Assembly: GCA_024275165.1 (NCBI GenBank)
Contig: JAJRZQ010000017.1
Coordinates: 1 to 55,296, forward strand
Length of the DNA: 55,296 nt
DNA from: a bacterium
GTDB lineage: Bacteria; SAR324; XYD2-FULL-50-16
Reading direction: 5' to 3'
This document shows positions 38,723 through 48,765 of this stretch, in pieces. The notes under the pieces were generated by a model. The model was given only the letters and a program-made list of their open reading frames with translations, was not told the DNA's origin and made no database searches. Every line of letters starts with the position of its first letter. The first letter of the stretch is position 1. The translations under genes and the position numbers were made by a program.

Positions 38723-39028
38723 TTAAGCGTCCACAAAATCGGCAAAAAGCGGGATATTGCTCTTGATCCAGGCATAGGCCAGGGCATAGGTATTTGCCCA
38801 TGCCGGGTCTTGAGCGGTAGTATCCATCTCAGCCGAGGGCAGGTGATAGGTCATCGTCTGTTCCAGCCTGTCTGGTTGGGGATTGGTGGTTGCCGCATCT
38901 TTGAGCCACAGGTCAAAATCCACATAATGCCCCACTCCCTCTTGAGCGCCGGGCTTGTTGCGCATAACCCGGCGTACTACTCCATAGTAATACAGAGTTC
39001 CACCGGCAATATCTTTTTTAAGAGCCAT
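38723..39028 (-). CDS. Small phage tail-region protein, 101 aa
   Basis: ATG 39028 has a GGAGGATTT site. It begins MALKKDIAGGTLYYYGVVRR and has a strand-rich first half and a helical C-terminus (WIKSNIPLFADFVDA). It follows the tail-fibre gene by 11 bases, the place where phages often keep fibre assembly or accessory genes. No family is recognised. Confidence 0.65.
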   Translation of the reverse strand: MALKKDIAGGTLYYYGVVRRVMRNKPGAQEGVGHYVDFDLWLKDAATTNPQPDRLEQTMTYHLPSAEMDTTAQDPAWANTYALAYAWIKSNIPLFADFVDA

Positions 39029-39039
39029 AATAAATCCTC

Positions 39040-40098
39040 CTAATAAACTTTGATAATAAAAAAACAAGATAGATATTTTGGCCGATTTTCGGTGGCTGTT
39101 GGGGCCAGGCCTGACCCAATCGCCCCGCTTAAGGCATGCCCGTGTGCTGGAACATAAATTTCCACATCTGGCGATGCGGAAATATAGCCTTTTGCGTAGG
39201 ATGCCCGGATGTTTGAGTATGATCCGTTTGCGCTATCGGTTGGGTCAACGGTGACGGTTCGACCGGTAATATCGATAACCCGAGTCGCTGCGACGGATGA
39301 TATTGATAAAGTACCTAACCCGTGATTATGGTCTAACATCGCATTGCTTCCCCCGCCCCCGCCCGCCGTGGTACTGCCTTGTAAAAAGCGGCTGTCGGTC
39401 AGATTGGGAAGGTTTTTGCCTGCGGCATTGTAAAGGGGAGAGTAGGCTAAGCTTAAGGCTGACCCATCGCAGGCGAACCAGCCCCTGGGGTTTAGGTAAG
39501 CGTTTGCCCCTGTCACATCGTTGGTGGCCGCCAAGGCCAGCGCAAAGGCACCATTGCCTCCGTCGCCAAAGGTGCCAGGCATCCAGGCAATGATGCTGCC
39601 TGCCGGCAGGCTCTCATCTTTTTTTGGGGCAATCCATAAAGCAAAATCAAGAATAGTTGCCTGCGTATCTTGATGTTGTCCTACATGCATCAAGGGGAAA
39701 AGGGTTTCATCGGCTACTCGGTTGGCCAAATCCGCCCCATCCGTATAAAGATCGTTTAAAGGGCCTGGGTCTTGTCCTTCCAATGCTTCGGCGATAATCG
39801 TCCCGGTCGCGTGATTGGCAAAATAAACCTTTCGGGTCGCGTCGGGTACGATATTGATGGTGGGAAACTCAACTATATCCACCGTTCCATCGGCAAAAAA
39901 ATATTGCACCGCCACCCCGGAAAGGTCGCCGGTCATTGAGTTGTAATCCCCGGCAAGCAATCGGTTTTTGCTGATCAAAGCCTCTAAAATAATGCCTTGC
40001 AGCATGGTATCGGCCCGCAGGCTCCCCTGCGCCTTGGTGCCGATTTCGGGCAACATGGTGCCGATGGGTGTAATCTTACGGATTAAGCTATTTTGCAT
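39040..40098 (-). CDS. Phage tail fibre/collar-domain protein
   Basis: This 352-aa protein has a tail-collar domain in its C-terminal half: GSIIAWMPGTFGD, RGWFACDGSALS, LPNLTDSRFLQGS and LDHNHGLGT, and ends NRPKYLSCFFIIKVY. These motifs are typical of short tail fibres and receptor-binding collars. The N-terminal part is likely the baseplate attachment. ATG 40098 has a GAGAGG site. The C-terminus would face the host surface. Confidence 0.88.
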   Translation of the reverse strand: MQNSLIRKITPIGTMLPEIGTKAQGSLRADTMLQGIILEALISKNRLLAGDYNSMTGDLSGVAVQYFFADGTVDIVEFPTINIVPDATRKVYFANHATGTIIAEALEGQDPGPLNDLYTDGADLANRVADETLFPLMHVGQHQDTQATILDFALWIAPKKDESLPAGSIIAWMPGTFGDGGNGAFALALAATNDVTGANAYLNPRGWFACDGSALSLAYSPLYNAAGKNLPNLTDSRFLQGSTTAGGGGGSNAMLDHNHGLGTLSISSVAATRVIDITGRTVTVDPTDSANGSYSNIRASYAKGYISASPDVEIYVPAHGHALSGAIGSGLAPTATENRPKYLSCFFIIKVY

Positions 40099-40107
40099 GG
40101 TCGCCTC

Positions 40108-40617
40108 TCAAAAAAAATGGCCAAAGGGTGAAACTCCAAACCCGCCGGTATCATCGTATTGCAAAAGCTGAAACCAGGGGATGCACCTCGCGGGCAGCAT
40201 GAGTTGAATAAATTCGTCTACCTGAGCCAAGGCGGACTCGTCTAAAGGGGAAACCCATATCCGCACGGTCACCCAGGGATAATATGCGGCAAGGGGGCTG
40301 TATCTCATTTCCTCATGGCGAAACAGCGCCAGGGCAAACATGGTTCCGATCAAGTCTAGCCCTGAGCTGGTCGCAACCTGTTCCATTACTTGGTCATAGT
40401 AGCGGGCAAAATATCGTTTATTTGCCTTACTTAAGCCTGCGGGGCGAATGGGCACATCGGCCCAAATAATCTCCATTCCCGTTTTGGTGAGGTGCTTAAT
40501 TCGCCCCGACTCAAAAACCGTTTCAACCCAGCCCTCGACCAAAGCCCACAAAGCTTCAGCCATAAATTGAAAGGGGGCTGCCCCTTTAAGCCAAAATGGC
40601 AGATCTGTTAACTTCAC
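40108..40617 (-). CDS. Tail protein I / Mu gp48-like baseplate protein
   Basis: This 169-aa protein follows the baseplate J gene with a 4-base overlap and precedes the tail fibre, as gpI or gp48 does in P2 and Mu. It begins MKLTDLPFWLKGAAPFQF; GMEIIWADVPIRP and LMLPARCIPWF are plausible family segments. The assignment rests on both gene order and weak sequence resemblance. Confidence 0.7.
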   Translation of the reverse strand: MKLTDLPFWLKGAAPFQFMAEALWALVEGWVETVFESGRIKHLTKTGMEIIWADVPIRPAGLSKANKRYFARYYDQVMEQVATSSGLDLIGTMFALALFRHEEMRYSPLAAYYPWVTVRIWVSPLDESALAQVDEFIQLMLPARCIPWFQLLQYDDTGGFGVSPFGHFF

Positions 40618-41762
40618 GGCAGTATCCCTGGCGTGGTGGTTGGGGTAAAAAAGTTGCCTGTGGGTAAGGCCATGCTTTGGGGGGTGATCCTTGTCTTCAG
40701 GTCAGGCCAAGTCTCTTGAGCGTAATCATGTAAATCACTCGCTTCAAAGTCTGTCCCCTGGATGATCCCTTCCCTTGTGCCGTTCATTTTTCCTTGGAAA
40801 AAGTCGGCCACTTTTTGTCGCGTCTCCGCATCGGTGCCCCCGTTTTTGTAAAGCAGCTCGATGTCGATATTTAAAGGAGCGGCGGCGTTTAAAACCCCGT
40901 GGTCCGTTTTCATTTTTTCAGCGTCAAACAAAGCCTGCGCCTCGCTTAAGGTTGCCCCCGGCACTTGGCCCGTTTCTCCGTAAAGAGTTATGGACATCAT
41001 CGCCGTGTTGGGGTCGGCGCTGTCTAGAGTGCATTGAGCTACGCCCGCAACCGTTTTGAGCAGTCGTTCATAGTAAAGCCATCCCCCTAAGAGGAAATTT
41101 TTTAAAGATCGAAGGTTGATAATTCTTGCTCGGTAAGCTTCGTCATCTTCGGGGTCGGTGCCGGCCAGATCGGTCACCCCTGCAAAGGTAATGCCGCTAA
41201 AGGAGAGTTGGCTTTCACAAGCCCAATCGAGCCCCGCGGCGGCATTGTAGGCAGTGGAAAAAACCTGCGCGCGTCCATCCAAATAGAGTGATTCCGGGCA
41301 GATCGCCTCAACCTGGGCGGTAAAATTGGTATCGGCGTCTAAAGGGGTGATATCGACTAAGGTCTGGTAACGGCGAGGGCTCGACTCTAAAATATAAAAC
41401 ACCGTCCCGATTGGGGCAGACAGTGGCGTGCCCGCAGCCTTGACCAAGTCCAAGGTAAGCTTAGTCTTCGTCCCCAGGTCGCGCTCTAGCCCGTTGTCCA
41501 AACCTTGCTCGTCGAGCCAGTGACCGGTAGCATAGCGTAGATAAAGCTGCGGAATTAAAAGCCGAAAAGCAGCCATCACCAAGAGCCAAGCTCCAACAAG
41601 ACAAATATCCAAAAGCCTTGTAAATGGGTCGGATAAGGCCCCAACAATCGAGCTGATCCCTTGTTTAGCAGCTTCGGCCTGTATCTGGTCGGCCATGTAA
41701 TTATCAGAAAGCCCTAATTCATTAACTAGGGTCTCTAGTTTGGTTTCATCCATTGCAGGCAT
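40614..41762 (-). CDS. Baseplate J-like protein (Mu gp47)
   Basis: This 382-aa baseplate wedge protein has the J signature GVTDLAGTDPEDDEAYRARI preceded by a segment of the IGTVFY type and followed by a GGW/VAGVAQC region, with a C-terminal IDIELLYKNGGTDAETRQ that resembles the usual late domain. The length fits. A hydrophobic segment near residues 55-72 (LVGAWLLVMAAFRLL) is normal for the family. It overlaps gp48-like by 4 bases and follows gp46-like by 3 bases. Confidence 0.88.
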   Translation of the reverse strand: MPAMDETKLETLVNELGLSDNYMADQIQAEAAKQGISSIVGALSDPFTRLLDICLVGAWLLVMAAFRLLIPQLYLRYATGHWLDEQGLDNGLERDLGTKTKLTLDLVKAAGTPLSAPIGTVFYILESSPRRYQTLVDITPLDADTNFTAQVEAICPESLYLDGRAQVFSTAYNAAAGLDWACESQLSFSGITFAGVTDLAGTDPEDDEAYRARIINLRSLKNFLLGGWLYYERLLKTVAGVAQCTLDSADPNTAMMSITLYGETGQVPGATLSEAQALFDAEKMKTDHGVLNAAAPLNIDIELLYKNGGTDAETRQKVADFFQGKMNGTREGIIQGTDFEASDLHDYAQETWPDLKTRITPQSMALPTGNFFTPTTTPGILP

Positions 41763-41765
41763 ATT

Positions 41766-42116
41766 TTAAGACTCCAGCAGATTTAAGATAATCGAGATCG
41801 AGCGGTTGTCATTGCCAACCAACTCGGCAGTCAGCTCTAAAGTGGCTGCCTCATATTTAATGCTGATTCCGCCTACCCGCAGCGCATCGAAAGAGGCTTC
41901 AATATCGTCTTCCAGCGCGCTTAAAAGGCTATATCGCCTCTCTGGTCGAGCATTGACCAATTTGATGGTATTGGGGTGTTCCCTTACCGCAAAAAGCATC
42001 GCCTGTTCTAAGCAGGCCAAACCTGCCAAGGTAACCAGTCCCCCAGTAACGGGGTCGACCTTGATTGCCCCAGTGAGCTGATCCACCTCTAAACTAATCA
42101 AATCATCAATAACCAT
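41766..42116 (-). CDS. Mu gp46 / gpW-like baseplate wedge protein
   Basis: This 116-aa protein is placed between a small gene and baseplate J, as gp46 or gpW always is. It contains GGLVTLAGLACLEQAMLFAV near the N-terminus, a YSLLSALEDDIEASFDAL helix and strand pairs at the end. The length and order are right. The start at 42116 has no strong Shine-Dalgarno but no better candidate. Confidence 0.75.
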   Translation of the reverse strand: MVIDDLISLEVDQLTGAIKVDPVTGGLVTLAGLACLEQAMLFAVREHPNTIKLVNARPERRYSLLSALEDDIEASFDALRVGGISIKYEAATLELTAELVGNDNRSISIILNLLES

Positions 42117-42124
42117 GCTGCTGT

Positions 42125-42349
42125 CTAAGGAAAATCAAATTTACCGCCTGTCATAGCCCCGCCGGTTAGGGGTTGTGGGCCTAACTGAGTGGCTGTGGTA
42201 CCAATGACGGCCCCTGCCGCCGCGGACCAGGTGCCGTTAGCGGCCAACTCCTCAAAAATCGCTTGGATAATCGCCTGCAATACCGGGCTGGCTGTTTTGC
42301 CGGTGCTGGTTTCGTATCGGGCCACCGCCCCTGCCGCGCTAGCTGCCAT
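42125..42349 (-). CDS. Small Ala/Gly-rich phage protein, 74 aa
   Basis: It overlaps the end of the gp45-like gene by 11 bases and precedes gp46-like by 8. It begins MAASAAGAVARYETSTGKTA and is low-complexity, rich in Ala, Gly and Thr, ending GGAMTGGKFDFP. This looks like the tip or PAAR-like accessory of a spike. The exact role is unknown. Confidence 0.6.
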   Translation of the reverse strand: MAASAAGAVARYETSTGKTASPVLQAIIQAIFEELAANGTWSAAAGAVIGTTATQLGPQPLTGGAMTGGKFDFP

Positions 42350-42935
42350 TGAGACCTATTTTGACTACGGGCGACTTGACTAAAGGCACCTTGTTTTTTA
42401 TTGAATCCGCGGAGGTTTGCACCGCCGTCAAGTTTTGGTTGGGGGCCCCAAAGCTGTCGGATTGGGCGCAGGTTACAATCAAGTCGGCCAGCTCATTTAA
42501 TCGCTTGGCTAAGGGGCCATATAAAGCGGCAAAATCCTCGGCGCTGCCAAACTTGTATGCCATCGCCCCTTGAAACTGAACTGTTTTTTCTTCCACCTTG
42601 ACCATGCGACCGGTATAGAGATAGCCGGTGATGATCACCTGATCGGCCCTCCAATAGGGGTGGCTGATAATGCAGATCCGCCCCTTTTCTGGAGGGGTGT
42701 CATCGTAAGGGTTGGCGCTGGTTAAGGGAACCCGCATGATCGGTTTTTTAAATCGAGGGTCTCGCTTTAAGTTTGGCCCTAAAAGTTCGATATCGGCCAC
42801 TACTCTTGCGGGGTTTTGCGCCTCCATTCCCATGGCGGGGTAGACCCGCGCAATCTTGCCGTAGCGGGTCACATGCCATCCCCCCAAACCGGGGAAGGCT
42901 CGCATCATCAATTTTTTAAAGGCGCTCAGTTCCAT
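42339..42935 (-). CDS. Mu gp45-like baseplate spike protein
   Basis: This 198-aa protein begins MELSAFKKLMMRAFPGLGGW and has strand-rich segments (TRYGKIARVYPAMG, KGRICIISHPYWRADQVIITGYL) typical of the spike fold of Mu gp45 and P2 gpV. A helical C-terminus follows, which is less usual. It is the first gene of the visible tail operon, and no clear ribosome site precedes it. Upstream there should be gpD, tape-measure and sheath genes, but accessory plus-strand genes lie there instead. Confidence 0.65.
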   Translation of the reverse strand: MELSAFKKLMMRAFPGLGGWHVTRYGKIARVYPAMGMEAQNPARVVADIELLGPNLKRDPRFKKPIMRVPLTSANPYDDTPPEKGRICIISHPYWRADQVIITGYLYTGRMVKVEEKTVQFQGAMAYKFGSAEDFAALYGPLAKRLNELADLIVTCAQSDSFGAPNQNLTAVQTSADSIKNKVPLVKSPVVKIGLNGS

Positions 42936-42987: not shown

Positions 42988-43182
42988 ATGAATACTCCCT
43001 TATCCCTAACCGCAGACCAAATGCTGCAAGTGGCCGAATTGGCTGTCGAACTGACGACCGCCCAAATTGCTACCTTGAGCCGCAACCCAGTCGGCAGTTC
43101 CGAAGTGGATAAAATCTTCAAGGCGGCCATAAAACAACCTCGCTCTTTAAACATTACAATCTCGCAACGGAAGAGGAATTGA
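42988..43182 (+). CDS. Small accessory phage protein, 64 aa
   Basis: ATG 42988 has an AGAGGA site. The product begins MNTPLSLTADQMLQVAELAV, is helical, and ends in a basic tail (ISQRKRN). It lies 26 bases before the 275-aa accessory gene on the same strand and may be its partner. I prefer it to an overlapping minus-strand frame (42948-43154), which has no good start. No family is recognised. Confidence 0.55.
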   Translation: MNTPLSLTADQMLQVAELAVELTTAQIATLSRNPVGSSEVDKIFKAAIKQPRSLNITISQRKRN

Positions 43183-43208
43183 GCGATACTAAATGGCTAT
43201 AGAGACAA

Positions 43209-44036
43209 ATGGGTAGGGAATTAAAGAGACTAAAGCGAAGAAAAAAGCTTTTAGCAAAAATCGAAGAAATTTTGGAAAATGCCTCCACCGCAATGGTAAT
43301 CCATTATTCTTGTGAAAGCTTTTGTGATAAAGCCAATGGCAAAACATCCAGAATCACCTCCATTGCTGTTCGTAATTTTGAATCAGGCCAAACAGAATCC
43401 TTTTCTATTCATCAGATTGCCGAAGAAAGAAAAATCGATATTAGCGGAATTTCTGGCCACTATGATGACATGGAAACGGAAATGCTTAGACGGTACTTTG
43501 ATTTCGTTAATATAAGGCAGCATTGCACTTGGGTTCATTGGAACATGCGAGATGTCAATTATGGATTTGCGGCAATTGAGCATCGATACCGAGTACTTGG
43601 AGGGGAGCCTATTCTCATTCCTGAAGACAGGAAATTTGATTTAGCAAGAGCTTTGGTTAGTATCTATGGAGTTGGCTATATAGGGCATCCGCGATTAGAG
43701 AAGATTGTTAAGAAAAATAAAATTTCTGATTTGGACTTTCTGAAAGGGGCCGATGAGGCTGAAGCTTTTGAAAACAAGGAATTCATTAATTTACATCGAT
43801 CCACATTGCGAAAAGTTGATGTCCTTGCGAATCTTTTTGAAAGGACTTCAAATTTTACGCTAGAGGTAAACTCTACATGGCGAGAACAATATGGAGTTAC
43901 CCCCGCTGTAATTGGCGAATTGATCAAAGAGCACTGGATTACCGCCTCTCTGATTACTCTCGGGGGATTATTGACAGTGATTATCCGTGTCTTTGAGCTT
44001 TGGGACCTTTTCAATGGGTGTGGGGGCTGGAAATAG
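43209..44036 (+). CDS. Membrane-anchored accessory protein with possible RNase H-like fold
   Basis: This 275-aa protein has a basic N-terminus (RELKRLKRRKKLL), a central globular domain and a C-terminal membrane helix (ASLITLGGLLTVIIRVFELW, about residues 249-268). In the domain, a first strand (AMVIHYSCESF), further strands, a helix with HWNMRDVNYGF, then FDLARALVSIYG, HPRLEKIV and a final helix with HRSTLRKVDVLANLF follow the order seen in DnaQ-type exonucleases. The DxExT motif is lacking. This is inference; no family is known to me. The DNA is more AT-rich than neighbours. It sits between tail genes and repressor, a common spot for phage-borne defence genes. Confidence 0.6.
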   Translation: MGRELKRLKRRKKLLAKIEEILENASTAMVIHYSCESFCDKANGKTSRITSIAVRNFESGQTESFSIHQIAEERKIDISGISGHYDDMETEMLRRYFDFVNIRQHCTWVHWNMRDVNYGFAAIEHRYRVLGGEPILIPEDRKFDLARALVSIYGVGYIGHPRLEKIVKKNKISDLDFLKGADEAEAFENKEFINLHRSTLRKVDVLANLFERTSNFTLEVNSTWREQYGVTPAVIGELIKEHWITASLITLGGLLTVIIRVFELWDLFNGCGGWK

Positions 44037-44432: not shown

Positions 44433-45275
44433 TTAAATTGAGCCCCCTGCCCAAACAGCCATGCCGATAATACTTACACTATCATCCTTGGGTAGCAATT
44501 GCGAATTGTAGCGAGGGTTATCTGATTTTAAAGCTATGTTTCCGTTGATTTGAACCTCAAAACGCTTAACTAATAATTGGTTATCTACTCTGATTACAAA
44601 AACCTTGCCGTTGCGAGGCGTGTTTTGAGACAGATCCACGAGTAGGATGTCATCTTCGCTCAAAGTTGGCTCCATCGAGTCACCGTAAACATTTACAAGT
44701 ACTAGTTTATCTGTATTGCCTTTGACTTTTTGTTTTAACCAATCTTTGCGAAAAGCCAAGTATTTTGGTGCGTAATCTAAGTAATTTTCTACCCCCACCC
44801 CTGCCGATACCTGAATATCATAAAGCGGCACCATCTCAAAATCTTTAGAGGAGAGTGCAACCTTGCTTTTTTTATTGTGCTCAATTCTTGGCTCCTTTAC
44901 TCGATCGGCTTGTGTTATATCGGAGGTGGGGGCAGGTTTGATATCTGCTAGTTCCGGCCAGCGATCAATTAGAATCTCTCTTGCTTTTAAACATAAACCC
45001 CTAGCCGATCCATTCCAAACGGAAGCCATAGGAAATTTTTTTCGCAAAATCCATCCCACAGCTTCTTCTGCTATTTTTTTATCTTTCAAGTTTTGAGCCC
45101 AAGCGATTTGTATTTCATCGGGCAAAACATCTACTAGATATAATCTTTTAGGTCGTCCAGCACTGGATTCCGGATCAGAAATAAACCCCCAATTTTTACG
45201 AATCGCTTTTTCATACAGACCTCTGGTTTGTAGTGTGAGTAGTTTTGCTAAATCGGTAATTGTAAGAGTTTGCAT
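44433..45275 (-). CDS. Mu-type phage repressor with S24 (LexA-like) autocleavage domain
   Basis: This 280-aa repressor has an N-terminal Mu-type winged-helix DNA-binding domain (LTITDLAKLLTLQTRGLYEK) that resembles the transposase N-terminus (LTIKDLVALLDLKERGLYER), so both may bind related operators, as in Mu. The C-terminal peptidase S24 domain has S200 in VYGDSMEPTL, K237 in LLVKRF, and a possible cleavage site A158-G159 in VSAGVGV. It should be induced by RecA-dependent DNA damage signalling. It diverges from the early operon. Confidence 0.92.
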   Translation of the reverse strand: MQTLTITDLAKLLTLQTRGLYEKAIRKNWGFISDPESSAGRPKRLYLVDVLPDEIQIAWAQNLKDKKIAEEAVGWILRKKFPMASVWNGSARGLCLKAREILIDRWPELADIKPAPTSDITQADRVKEPRIEHNKKSKVALSSKDFEMVPLYDIQVSAGVGVENYLDYAPKYLAFRKDWLKQKVKGNTDKLVLVNVYGDSMEPTLSEDDILLVDLSQNTPRNGKVFVIRVDNQLLVKRFEVQINGNIALKSDNPRYNSQLLPKDDSVSIIGMAVWAGGSI

Positions 45276-46019: not shown

Positions 46020-46661
46020 ATGAGAATTTTTCTGATTTTGATCACAGGGGCCTTGATGGCCTGGGAAGCAGGAGAGGCCTATGCCGGTTTTTATCATAGT
46101 TTTACTTGGCGGGGATACGCCATGGCGGGGCTGGCTGAAATTTTTTTAGCGATTTGCCTGGCGATACGACTCCCCGAAAACCCCTTACTCAGATTTAGTT
46201 TTAGGGGATTGGGGGTGTTGTTGTTTGTTGTGGTGGTTGCTGGGGCAGCGGCTAGGGACGCAAGGCAAGTCTGGGTAGGGATAAATCAAGCACAGGCGCG
46301 ACAGGCCAGTGAGGAGGCTTTAAACAAGGCACTCGCTAATAGTGATAAGGCTTTAATTCTAGTGGCTGGACAGCGGACAAACACGGTTTTGCAACTTAAA
46401 CGACGGGCTGAGTTAGAGGATCGATTGATTACCATTCAAAATCAAACCACAAACAGCGCGATAGAGTGGGGAACGCTGATTTTGGTTTTGCTCCTGCGGT
46501 TTGGAGTGCAAGCGGGGAACGCCTTACTGGCTCACAACTTAAGTCTGGATGGATTAAAATCTAAAAACAAAGAGCTTAAAGTCAACCCCGCGAGCGCTAT
46601 TGCCATCTTACGCAAACAAGGCAAGAGCCAAGTGAAACAGATTATCGCTAAAGTAAACTGA
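46020..46661 (+). CDS. Phage membrane protein with coiled-coil loop, 213 aa
   Basis: ATG 46020 has a GGAAGGA site. There are probably four hydrophobic segments (residues about 1-15, 33-48, 58-77, and 148-166), with a coiled-coil stretch between the third and fourth (ARQASEEALNKALANSDKAL) and a basic C-terminus. It lies directly before the transposase gene. No family is recognised; the arrangement could suit a superinfection-exclusion protein, which is speculation. Confidence 0.65.
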   Translation: MRIFLILITGALMAWEAGEAYAGFYHSFTWRGYAMAGLAEIFLAICLAIRLPENPLLRFSFRGLGVLLFVVVVAGAAARDARQVWVGINQAQARQASEEALNKALANSDKALILVAGQRTNTVLQLKRRAELEDRLITIQNQTTNSAIEWGTLILVLLLRFGVQAGNALLAHNLSLDGLKSKNKELKVNPASAIAILRKQGKSQVKQIIAKVN

Positions 46662-46665
46662 ATTT

Positions 46666-48765
46666 ATGAGTGATCTAACTATCAAGGATTTAGTTGCTCT
46701 ACTCGACCTAAAAGAGAGGGGGTTATATGAGCGAGCTCAACGAAATCAATGGTCTTATAAAGAGATAAAAGGCCGAGGCCGAGCGAAACGCCTCTACCCC
46801 TTTGCAAGTCTGCCTCAGGAGGTGCAGTTAGAGGTGATTAAAAAAGCGACGCCCGAGCTGATTACTAAATTGACAACCACTCAAGGACTGAAAAATAGCG
46901 TGGCGGCAAGCCTCGCCCAGCGTGTTAACGAGATCAATAAGGCTCAGACCCCAAAAAACGAAACGATCTTTAAATTACCCCTACGGGCTTTAACTGACGA
47001 GCGCAGAGAAGGGGCTTTAGAAAAAGAAGCCTGGGTAAAATGGTTTTATACCCAAAAGGCCGAAAGATACAAGTTAAAGGATATCGCTATGATGTTGGAG
47101 CAACGCAAGCAAGCTGGTGAGGCAGCCCCCTCATTAAGAATGTTGCAGTATTGGGTTAAAGCGGTTGATGACAAAGGCCGAGGTGGTTTGATTGATCAGC
47201 GTTGGAAAAGCGGGCGCAAGACCAAAATAACGCCAGAAGTGGAAGAGCAACTGATAAGCTTGATTGTACATAATCCTGATGCTCGCGTCCCTCATTTGGT
47301 CGAAACCATGAGATTGCTGCTCGGCGTCGATATCAAAGAAGACACCTTGCGCCAGTGGCTACATCGTAAAAAGGATCAAGTGGATAAAAGGCTCATGGCT
47401 TTTTTGATCAACCCCGACAAAGCAAAGAGGTATCTACCTTATCCGGGCCAAGCGCACGGGTGGACTCGGTTGAAATACCTCGACATGATAGAATGGGACG
47501 GCACACCTGCCGATGTACATTGCATTGACGGACGCTATACCTTAATGGCTGCTATAGATGTGGCCACCCGCCAAGTGCAGGCTATCCTCACTAAAACCTC
47601 GACTGCCGAGGCATCTAAAATGCTGCTGCGACAGGTTATATTGGGATGGGGTAAACCTAAAGCTTTCCGAGGTGACCAAGGGTCAGAATTTATTAACAGC
47701 GAAATCGAATGGGTGTTTGGCAATTTGGATATCGTAATGATGCCAGCACCGCCATACAGTGGTGAGAGTAAGCCGTTTATTGAGCGGTTTTTTGGCACTT
47801 TAACCCGCGGTCTGTTTGAAATAACCCCTGGGTACAAGGGGCACAATGTTGCCGATGCGCAAGATATTCGGTCGAGACTGAGTTTTGCCAAGCGCAAGGC
47901 CTTGGAAAAAGAGGATGAAGCGGTTAAAGATAAGGTCTACTACCGCGTGCAGCTAACAGCGACACAACTTTATAAGCGAGTGAACCAGTATTTAAGCGTT
48001 TATCATGAGACGGTACACAGCAGCTTAAGTAAAACACCTAATCAACGCCTGGAGGAGCTATTGCCTCAAACCGAGATCATTCGTCCGGATGAACGGGAGT
48101 TGGATATCTTACTCAGCGATCAGCGAACAGGCAAGATCACTGCTAAGGGGATTGTGTTTAAAACCCTGGGCGAGAGCCGTATTTACACTGCTGACGAATA
48201 TATAAATCACATTGGGCAAAAGGTACGGATTTTTATCGACCCCAACCCTCACATGATCCATCTGTTTGATTTTGAGGGTCAATATCTGTTTACCGCCTAT
48301 GACCGGGCGGTTGACCCCAAAAAGGCACTGGCCGCCAGAGGCGAAATTTTAGAAAACATCCACAGCCGCTTAGAGTATTACCGAGATTTAGCTAAGCAAG
48401 CGGGCTGGGATGAACGAGATCCTCATATGCAGGCTCTGGAGATTAAAGCGGCAATGGGAGGTGAACGAGAAACAGAATTACTGAACAAGATCAACCAAAA
48501 GGCGGTTAAAGAATCAAATCTAGAACTCGCCAAGGCTGTGGAGGCCGCTATTGCCGACCAAAGCATCAATCAAGCCAGAGAGACACTTAAATCTAGGCAT
48601 CACCAAGAGCAAGCGGCAGAACAAGACTTGTACCTGGATGGTTATTTACGACTCCAACAAAAACTGAAAAACGGAGAAAAACTCACCCCTGACGAATCGC
48701 AGACCATGATTGACTTTGCACGGGCAGCAAGTGTCCGTGATTATCTAACACCAGAGGAGCAATGA
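46666..48765 (+). CDS. MuA-like DDE transposase
   Basis: This 699-aa transposase drives integration and replicative transposition of the phage. The N-terminal Mu winged helix (LTIKDLVALLDLKERGLYER) is followed by further DNA-binding domains, and the RNase H-like core has D278 (MIEWDGTPADV), D337 (FRGDQGSEF) and E373 (KPFIERFFGT). A C-terminal domain (residues about 500-699) is for assembly and MuB contact. Its length is close to that of MuA. ATG 46666 lies 4 bases after the previous stop; the stop overlaps muB by 4 bases. Confidence 0.96.
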   Translation: MSDLTIKDLVALLDLKERGLYERAQRNQWSYKEIKGRGRAKRLYPFASLPQEVQLEVIKKATPELITKLTTTQGLKNSVAASLAQRVNEINKAQTPKNETIFKLPLRALTDERREGALEKEAWVKWFYTQKAERYKLKDIAMMLEQRKQAGEAAPSLRMLQYWVKAVDDKGRGGLIDQRWKSGRKTKITPEVEEQLISLIVHNPDARVPHLVETMRLLLGVDIKEDTLRQWLHRKKDQVDKRLMAFLINPDKAKRYLPYPGQAHGWTRLKYLDMIEWDGTPADVHCIDGRYTLMAAIDVATRQVQAILTKTSTAEASKMLLRQVILGWGKPKAFRGDQGSEFINSEIEWVFGNLDIVMMPAPPYSGESKPFIERFFGTLTRGLFEITPGYKGHNVADAQDIRSRLSFAKRKALEKEDEAVKDKVYYRVQLTATQLYKRVNQYLSVYHETVHSSLSKTPNQRLEELLPQTEIIRPDERELDILLSDQRTGKITAKGIVFKTLGESRIYTADEYINHIGQKVRIFIDPNPHMIHLFDFEGQYLFTAYDRAVDPKKALAARGEILENIHSRLEYYRDLAKQAGWDERDPHMQALEIKAAMGGERETELLNKINQKAVKESNLELAKAVEAAIADQSINQARETLKSRHHQEQAAEQDLYLDGYLRLQQKLKNGEKLTPDESQTMIDFARAASVRDYLTPEEQ

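What the first reader, a model, noticed from the sequence alone, without database searches (positions are those of the whole stretch)
42988..44036. Accessory gene pair in a prophage hot spot, with a membrane-anchored possible nuclease-like protein
A 64-aa gene and a 275-aa gene lie together on the plus strand between a minus-strand tail module and a minus-strand repressor. They are more AT-rich than their neighbours. The larger product has a basic start, a domain whose strand-helix order looks like a DnaQ/RNase H fold without the usual acidic motif, and a C-terminal membrane helix. Prophages often carry defence or exclusion genes at such spots. The fold and role are inference.
Basis: inference. 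Interest (0 to 1): 0.62.

Follow-up and report, generated by a model that had tools for sequence, protein, structure and literature searches.

The report
Membrane-anchored pseudo-exonuclease prophage cargo gene
A gene tucked between the tail and repressor genes of a bacterial prophage makes a membrane-anchored protein with the shape of a DNA-trimming enzyme but without its usual catalytic residues; the same unnamed protein is scattered over at least 13 bacterial phyla, on prophages, plasmids and next to antiviral genes, which makes it a strong candidate for an undescribed way of protecting cells from viruses.

Summary
The 275-aa gene (43209-44036, +) is real and intact. It belongs to an unnamed family (PHROG 8766, "unknown function", E 1.7e-69) with at least 248 members among GTDB species genomes, in at least 13 phyla, and on temperate-phage contigs and plasmids; one of 52 genomes in its own phylum has it. 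The fold carries an active-site switch: two of the four metal-binding acids are replaced in all 113 aligned proteins (ExoI Asp by Ser34, Ala in one; ExoIII Asp by Lys202), and four members have no acid at any of the four positions. A C-terminal membrane helix is near universal. The 64-aa "partner" is an orphan without homologues, so the pair is not supported. Neighbours elsewhere include Gabija, type I and IIG restriction, Hma and PDC defence genes; in one E. coli lambdoid prophage the gene sits at the tail-fibre/att end, where lambda carries a Septu-like pair. Most likely: a solitary, tail-anchored, non-catalytic nucleic-acid sensor giving prophage-encoded exclusion or abortive infection. Fold prediction, residue switch and distribution are shown; function is inferred.

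The parts
43209..44036 (+). 275-aa protein, PHROG 8766 family: basic N-terminal helix (res 3-23), DEDD-exonuclease-fold domain (about 28-214), C-terminal membrane helix (about 243-262)
43302..43322 (+). ExoI-equivalent strand motif HYSCESF (res 32-38); H32 and Y33 invariant in 113 sequences, Ser34 in place of the ExoI Asp (112/113)
   Evidence: position of Ser34 by motif spacing and strand position, not by a residue-level structural alignment
43536..43568 (+). ExoII-equivalent motif HWNMRD...GF (res 110-120); H110, W111, R114, G119, F120 invariant
43791..43820 (+). ExoIII-equivalent helix motif LHxSTLRKVD (res 195-204); Ser198 at the Tyr position and Lys202 at the Asp position of DEDDy enzymes, both invariant
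43935..43994 (+). C-terminal membrane helix (about res 243-262); hydrophobic segment near the C-terminus of 104 of 113 relatives
42988..43182 (+). 64-aa orphan ORF, possibly a leader ORF of the same transcript; not a conserved partner
44433..45275 (-). S24-peptidase-type phage repressor (flank)
38723..42935 (-). baseplate and tail-fibre module (flank)
46666..48765 (+). Mu-type transposase (rve, Mu-transpos_C), showing that the element is a Mu-like prophage

Best explanation
The 275-aa protein is a solitary, horizontally mobile cargo ('moron') gene of a Mu-like prophage. It has a cytoplasmic domain with the DEDD 3'-5' exonuclease fold whose metal-binding acids have been replaced by an invariant Ser/Lys set, tied to the inner membrane by a C-terminal helix. 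Most likely it protects the lysogen from other phages: the pseudo-exonuclease pocket binds a nucleic-acid end or nucleotide made during infection, and the bound, clustered protein acts at the membrane, by permeabilising it (abortive infection) or by blocking entering DNA. Shown here: intact gene, family, fold prediction, residue replacement, membrane helix, sporadic distribution, and prophage, plasmid and defence-gene contexts. Inferred: anti-phage role (about 0.7 on its own), ligand (nucleic acid), non-catalytic mode, membrane effect.
For: Family and spread: PHROG 8766; 45 viral contigs; at least 248 places in species genomes, 80 kept, 13 named phyla in the tree with inter-phylum nesting; plasmids in several phyla; 1 of 52 genomes of its own phylum. 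Fold: pLDDT 92.8, nearest PDB folds are PolB, T7 polymerase, RNase T and DnaQ exonuclease domains; 38 of 113 members weakly match Pfam DNA_pol_B_exo1, best 5.8e-6. Switch: Asp at 34 in 0 of 113, Asp at 202 in 0 of 113, S198/T199/K202 invariant; four members lack all four acids, and one of them is predicted to keep the fold. Membrane helix: 104 of 113. Context: PADLOC models hit among 105 immediate neighbours 335, against 25 among 105 arbitrary genes; full-length Gabija GajA, HsdR twice, type IIG, HmaB, PDC-S06, -S19, -S56 neighbours; Streptococcus prophages between repressor and excisionase, opposite strand to lytic genes; E. coli lambdoid prophage between tail fibres and att, where a lambda prophage has a Septu-like PtuA/PDC-M01 pair.
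Against: No experiment. No PADLOC, NCBIfam or Pfam family describes it. Foldseek E-values to solved structures are modest (best 0.0077) and the profile alignment that maps the ExoIII residues is weak alone (P 0.009). Glu36 and Asp115 are kept in 108 and 106 of 113, so some chemistry or one metal site may remain. PADLOC model counts are not independent (many models per system). Prophages and defence islands also carry non-defence cargo.
Confidence: 0.5

Rival explanations
1. It is an active, atypical nuclease or phosphodiesterase held at the membrane, using the conserved His32/Glu36/His110/Asp115 set (one metal or none), that degrades entering phage DNA or RNA.
For: Glu36 and Asp115 kept in 108 and 106 of 113; invariant His32, His110, Arg114, Arg126; exonuclease fold.
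Against: Both Asp positions that complete the two-metal site are replaced in all members (Ser or once Ala; Lys); L031, L049, L051 and L052 have Gln/Asn at the two remaining acids yet keep all other invariants.
Confidence: 0.25
2. It is lysogenic-conversion or element-maintenance cargo with no anti-phage role (host membrane or stress physiology, plasmid stabilisation).
For: Present on plasmids and in genome regions without obvious defence genes.
Against: Strong defence-gene neighbourhood against control; repeated placement in phage lysogeny and tail/att accessory slots.
Confidence: 0.13
3. It is a counter-defence protein, for example a membrane-bound binder (sponge) or hydrolase of nucleotide immune signals used by the phage.
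For: A nuclease-like pocket could bind oligonucleotide signals (inference from the fold); carried by phages.
Against: Equally found in non-phage genome contexts beside defence genes, and often oriented against lytic genes, so probably expressed in the lysogen.
Confidence: 0.07
4. It is a phage structural or replication gene.
For: Lies beside a tail module.
Against: Found in unrelated phages at different sites, on plasmids and in chromosomes; membrane helix; opposite strand to the tail operon.
Confidence: 0.02

Closest known systems
Family B DNA polymerase 3'-5' exonuclease domain / predicted exonuclease PF10108 (DEDDy)
   Same: Predicted fold, strand-helix order, WN motif at ExoII, colinear profile alignment.
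   Different: Stand-alone with a membrane helix; ExoI Asp is Ser, ExoIII Tyr and Asp are Ser and Lys throughout the family.
MAEL domain of Maelstrom (PMC4408791, PMC2628886)
   Same: DEDD fold that lost the acids, with a basic residue (Arg306) in place of the last Asp; the metazoan form binds ssRNA without cleaving it (PMC4408791). It appears among the structural matches.
   Different: Eukaryotic, zinc ECHC motif, no membrane helix; probably an analogue by convergent loss, not an orthologue (inference).
PdpSau, prophage-encoded abortive-infection protein of Staphylococcus aureus (PMC10127798)
   Same: Single prophage accessory gene, membrane-anchored, positively charged cytoplasmic part; causes membrane depolarisation and cell death on infection.
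   Different: Its membrane helix is N-terminal and the paper describes similarity to an apoptotic protein; sequence relationship was not tested here.
Cap18 3'-5' exonuclease (CBASS-associated; PDB 7t2s)
   Same: DEDD-fold protein of a defence locus; appears among the structural matches.
   Different: No membrane helix in the solved chain of 177 residues; weak match (TM about 0.3-0.4); no family-level relation shown.

Membership tests
PHROG 8766 (unknown function) | Profile match over most of the length | tested here: met
   E 1.7e-69, residues 10-251 on profile 9-244 of 262
DEDD (DnaQ-like) 3'-5' exonuclease superfamily | RNase H-like exonuclease fold | tested here: met
   Models m96973a574e3f and md3e1927c656f; Foldseek top matches are mostly DEDD exonuclease domains, probability about 1.0 but E about 0.003-0.01
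DEDD (DnaQ-like) 3'-5' exonuclease superfamily | Four acidic metal ligands: ExoI DxE, ExoII D, ExoIII D | tested here: not met
   Ser or Ala at the ExoI Asp and Lys at the ExoIII Asp in all 113; four members have none of the four. Hence exonuclease-like, not an exonuclease by sequence
DEDD (DnaQ-like) 3'-5' exonuclease superfamily | Metal-dependent 3'-5' hydrolysis | not testable with these tools
   Needs purified protein
Known anti-phage defence system (PADLOC-DB 2.0.0) | Match to a defence-system model | tested here: not met
   0 models at E up to 10 for both ORFs
Anti-phage defence gene (as a kind) | Enriched next to known defence genes | tested here: met
   335 against 25 PADLOC models hit among 105 immediate neighbours and 105 control genes; named neighbours
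Anti-phage defence gene (as a kind) | Protects cells from phage | not testable with these tools
   Needs plaque assays
MAEL domain | ECHC zinc motif | tested here: inconclusive
   Conserved His/Cys/Glu residues exist (H32, H110 invariant; C35 in 111, E36 in 108 of 113), but no coordinates were available to test zinc geometry
Two-gene system with the 64-aa ORF | Partner conserved next to the family gene | tested here: not met
   No homologue in the other loci, in phages or in 57 other genomes

The most novel reading that the evidence does not exclude
A phylum-spanning, single-gene immune protein in which a DEDD exonuclease fold has been turned into a non-catalytic receptor for infection-derived nucleic acid and fused to a membrane effector helix: a bacterial counterpart of the Maelstrom active-site switch that works as an all-in-one sensor and membrane effector.
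Probability: 0.35. Interest if true: 0.78.

Novelty: new variant of a known kind. Interest (0 to 1): 0.58.

Why it matters
If right, a widespread and strongly conserved family (about 48% mean column identity over 113 proteins) that the searched libraries leave without a name or function is an unrecognised single-gene phage-exclusion protein, with a pseudo-enzyme rather than a nuclease as its recognition module. It offers small, directly testable genes, including one from E. coli (WP_064996024.1) at the lambda b-region position, and a clean mutational hypothesis (Ser34, Lys202, membrane helix).

Tried and rejected
First viral-contig scan with the single protein found nothing; the alignment query found 45. 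Pfam, NCBIfam and PDB sequence searches gave only chance-level hits. I briefly took several PF03104 hits in relatives' genomes for family members; inspection showed genuine FDIET exonucleases, so that evidence was dropped. Comparison with PF10108 alone aligned only part of the domain; a broader set gave the colinear alignment. Paper searches for the PHROG number and for membrane pseudo-exonuclease defence proteins found no description of this family. The gene-pair idea was rejected. The prophage could not be followed past 55296, where the contig ends. One E. coli query (L021 homologue) found nothing, another (L023 homologue) found a single genome.

Full report
OBSERVATION. The 275-aa frame is well beyond chance (0 of 500 shuffles) and its N-terminus matches relatives. 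The 64-aa ORF is within chance length, has tail-like rather than cargo-like composition, overlaps an antisense ORF, and has no homologue in phage records, in the 57 other genomes searched as relatives, or in any other locus collected. It has a Shine-Dalgarno-like sequence and a promoter-like match upstream, so it may be a leader ORF; it is not a conserved partner. The AT-richness is shared with the repressor region.

SURROUNDINGS. The element is a Mu-like prophage: baseplate and tail-fibre genes on the minus strand (38.7-42.9 kb), an S24-type repressor (44433-45275, minus), and a Mu-type transposase and early genes on the plus strand to the end of the contig. The gene lies between the modules on the strand opposite to both immediate flanks, a common arrangement for an independently expressed cargo gene.

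FAMILY. The protein matches PHROG 8766, unknown function, over nearly its whole length (E 1.7e-69), and no Pfam, NCBIfam or PADLOC family. Relatives occur in Streptococcus prophages, plasmids of cyanobacteria, Bacillota, alpha- and betaproteobacteria, 45 viral contigs and at least 248 places in GTDB species genomes. A tree of 80 rows spans 13 named phyla, with Chloroflexota/Atribacterota, Chlorobiota/Gammaproteobacteria and Bacteroidota/Bacillota rows nested together under good support. Only one of 52 genomes of the window's own phylum has it. This is the pattern of a mobile accessory gene; transfer is the natural reading, although the tree alone does not prove it.

FOLD AND ACTIVE SITE. With 113 sequences AlphaFold2 gives pLDDT 92.8 and pTM 0.84. 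Foldseek's best solved matches are mostly DEDD 3'-5' exonuclease domains: PolB, T7 polymerase, RNase T, DnaQ, Cap18 (probabilities up to 1.0, E about 0.01). The best viral-library matches are exonuclease and polymerase proteins (E 4e-5). Thirty-eight members weakly match Pfam DNA_pol_B_exo1 (best 5.8e-6). A colinear profile alignment to real PolB-type exonucleases puts Ser198 and Lys202 on the ExoIII Tyr and Asp, and Asn112 on the ExoII Asn (weak on its own, P 0.009). By motif spacing Ser34 takes the ExoI Asp position. These replacements hold throughout: Ser34 in 112 (Ala in one), Ser198 in 113, Lys202 in 113; Glu36 in 108, Asp115 in 106. Four members (L031, L049, L051, L052) keep no acid at any of the four positions, and L052 is still predicted to have the same fold (pLDDT 89.8). 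So the two-metal site is absent while a different residue set, including His32, His110, Arg114, Arg126, Ser198, Thr199 and Lys202, is invariant. The closest precedent is the MAEL domain, which lost its DEDD residues, has an Arg in place of the last Asp and binds ssRNA without cutting it (PMC4408791); MAEL structures appear among the matches in both searches.

MEMBRANE HELIX. 104 of 113 members have a hydrophobic 19-mer (KD at least 1.6) near the C-terminus and none reaches that value elsewhere. Basic residues are more frequent before the helix than after it, and the tail is short (median 4), consistent with a tail-anchored protein with its domain in the cytoplasm (inference by the positive-inside rule).

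CONTEXT. Among 105 immediate neighbours in other genomes and plasmids 335 PADLOC models are hit at 1e-8; among 105 arbitrary genes from some of the same genomes 25 models are hit, largely generic. The counts are of models, which are redundant, but individual neighbours are unmistakable: GajA (L093), type IIG (L089), HsdR (L085, L125), HmaB (L115), PDC-S06 (L074), PDC-S19 (L057), PDC-S56 (L083), and a partial PDC-S11 match (L081). In L125 the gene lies 8 bp before hsdR and overlaps the preceding gene by a few bases. In E. coli one of 5426 genomes has a homologue (89% identical to the contig query), 190 bp from ssrA, between the att site and the tail-fibre genes of a lambdoid prophage; it keeps the HYSCESF, HWNMRD and STLRKVD motifs. 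The matching flank in a lambda prophage carries a PtuA/PDC-M01 Septu-like pair. In Streptococcus prophages the gene lies between repressor and early genes on the lysogeny strand.

MECHANISM. Best reading: a lysogen-expressed exclusion or abortive-infection protein in which the pseudo-exonuclease pocket recognises a nucleic-acid end or nucleotide and the membrane helix delivers the effect. Anti-phage role about 0.7; the full statement, with non-catalytic sensing and membrane action, about 0.5; the main rival is residual atypical catalysis at the membrane. The prophage protein PdpSau shows that a single membrane-anchored prophage protein can act through membrane depolarisation (PMC10127798).

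LIMITS. No model coordinates were available, so pocket geometry (including a possible zinc site) is untested. PADLOC-DB dates from 2023 and the paper library is open-access only, so a description elsewhere cannot be excluded.

Noticed in passing
window 38723-42935: The minus-strand tail module begins with baseplate genes and has no tape-measure or sheath genes upstream of it on that strand; the repressor and early region follow in the opposite direction, an unusual order for a Mu-like phage. The contig ends at 55296, so the rest cannot be seen.
   Followed up: partly
L191:15001-15822 (E. coli NZ_CP159455.1 4210421-4211242): Only one of 5426 complete E. coli genomes gave a DNA match to the L023 homologue, at the att-proximal end of a lambdoid prophage in ssrA.
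   Followed up: yes
L194:2284-4748: The lambda prophage of E. coli J53 has an AAA ATPase and HNH pair between its tail fibres and bioA/ybhB that matches PtuA/PDC-M01A and PDC-M01B, so the b region itself is a defence-like slot.
   Followed up: partly
L125:4664-10009 and L085:3054-8037: Family members sit directly beside or within apparent type I restriction operons, recalling the position of anticodon-nuclease guards such as PrrC.
   Followed up: no
L081, L084, L088: Three loci from Chloroflexota, Atribacterota and Bacteroidales share the same downstream 419-aa and 848-aa genes, starting 14-19 bp after the family gene, a possible multi-gene version of the system.
   Followed up: no
window 44433-45275 and 46666-48765: The N-terminus of the repressor matches a transposase PHROG (phrog_310, E 0.0023), consistent with the shared DNA-binding domain of Mu repressor and transposase.
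   Followed up: no
window 46020-46661: A 213-aa early protein that looks membrane-bound and has no convincing family match.
   Followed up: no
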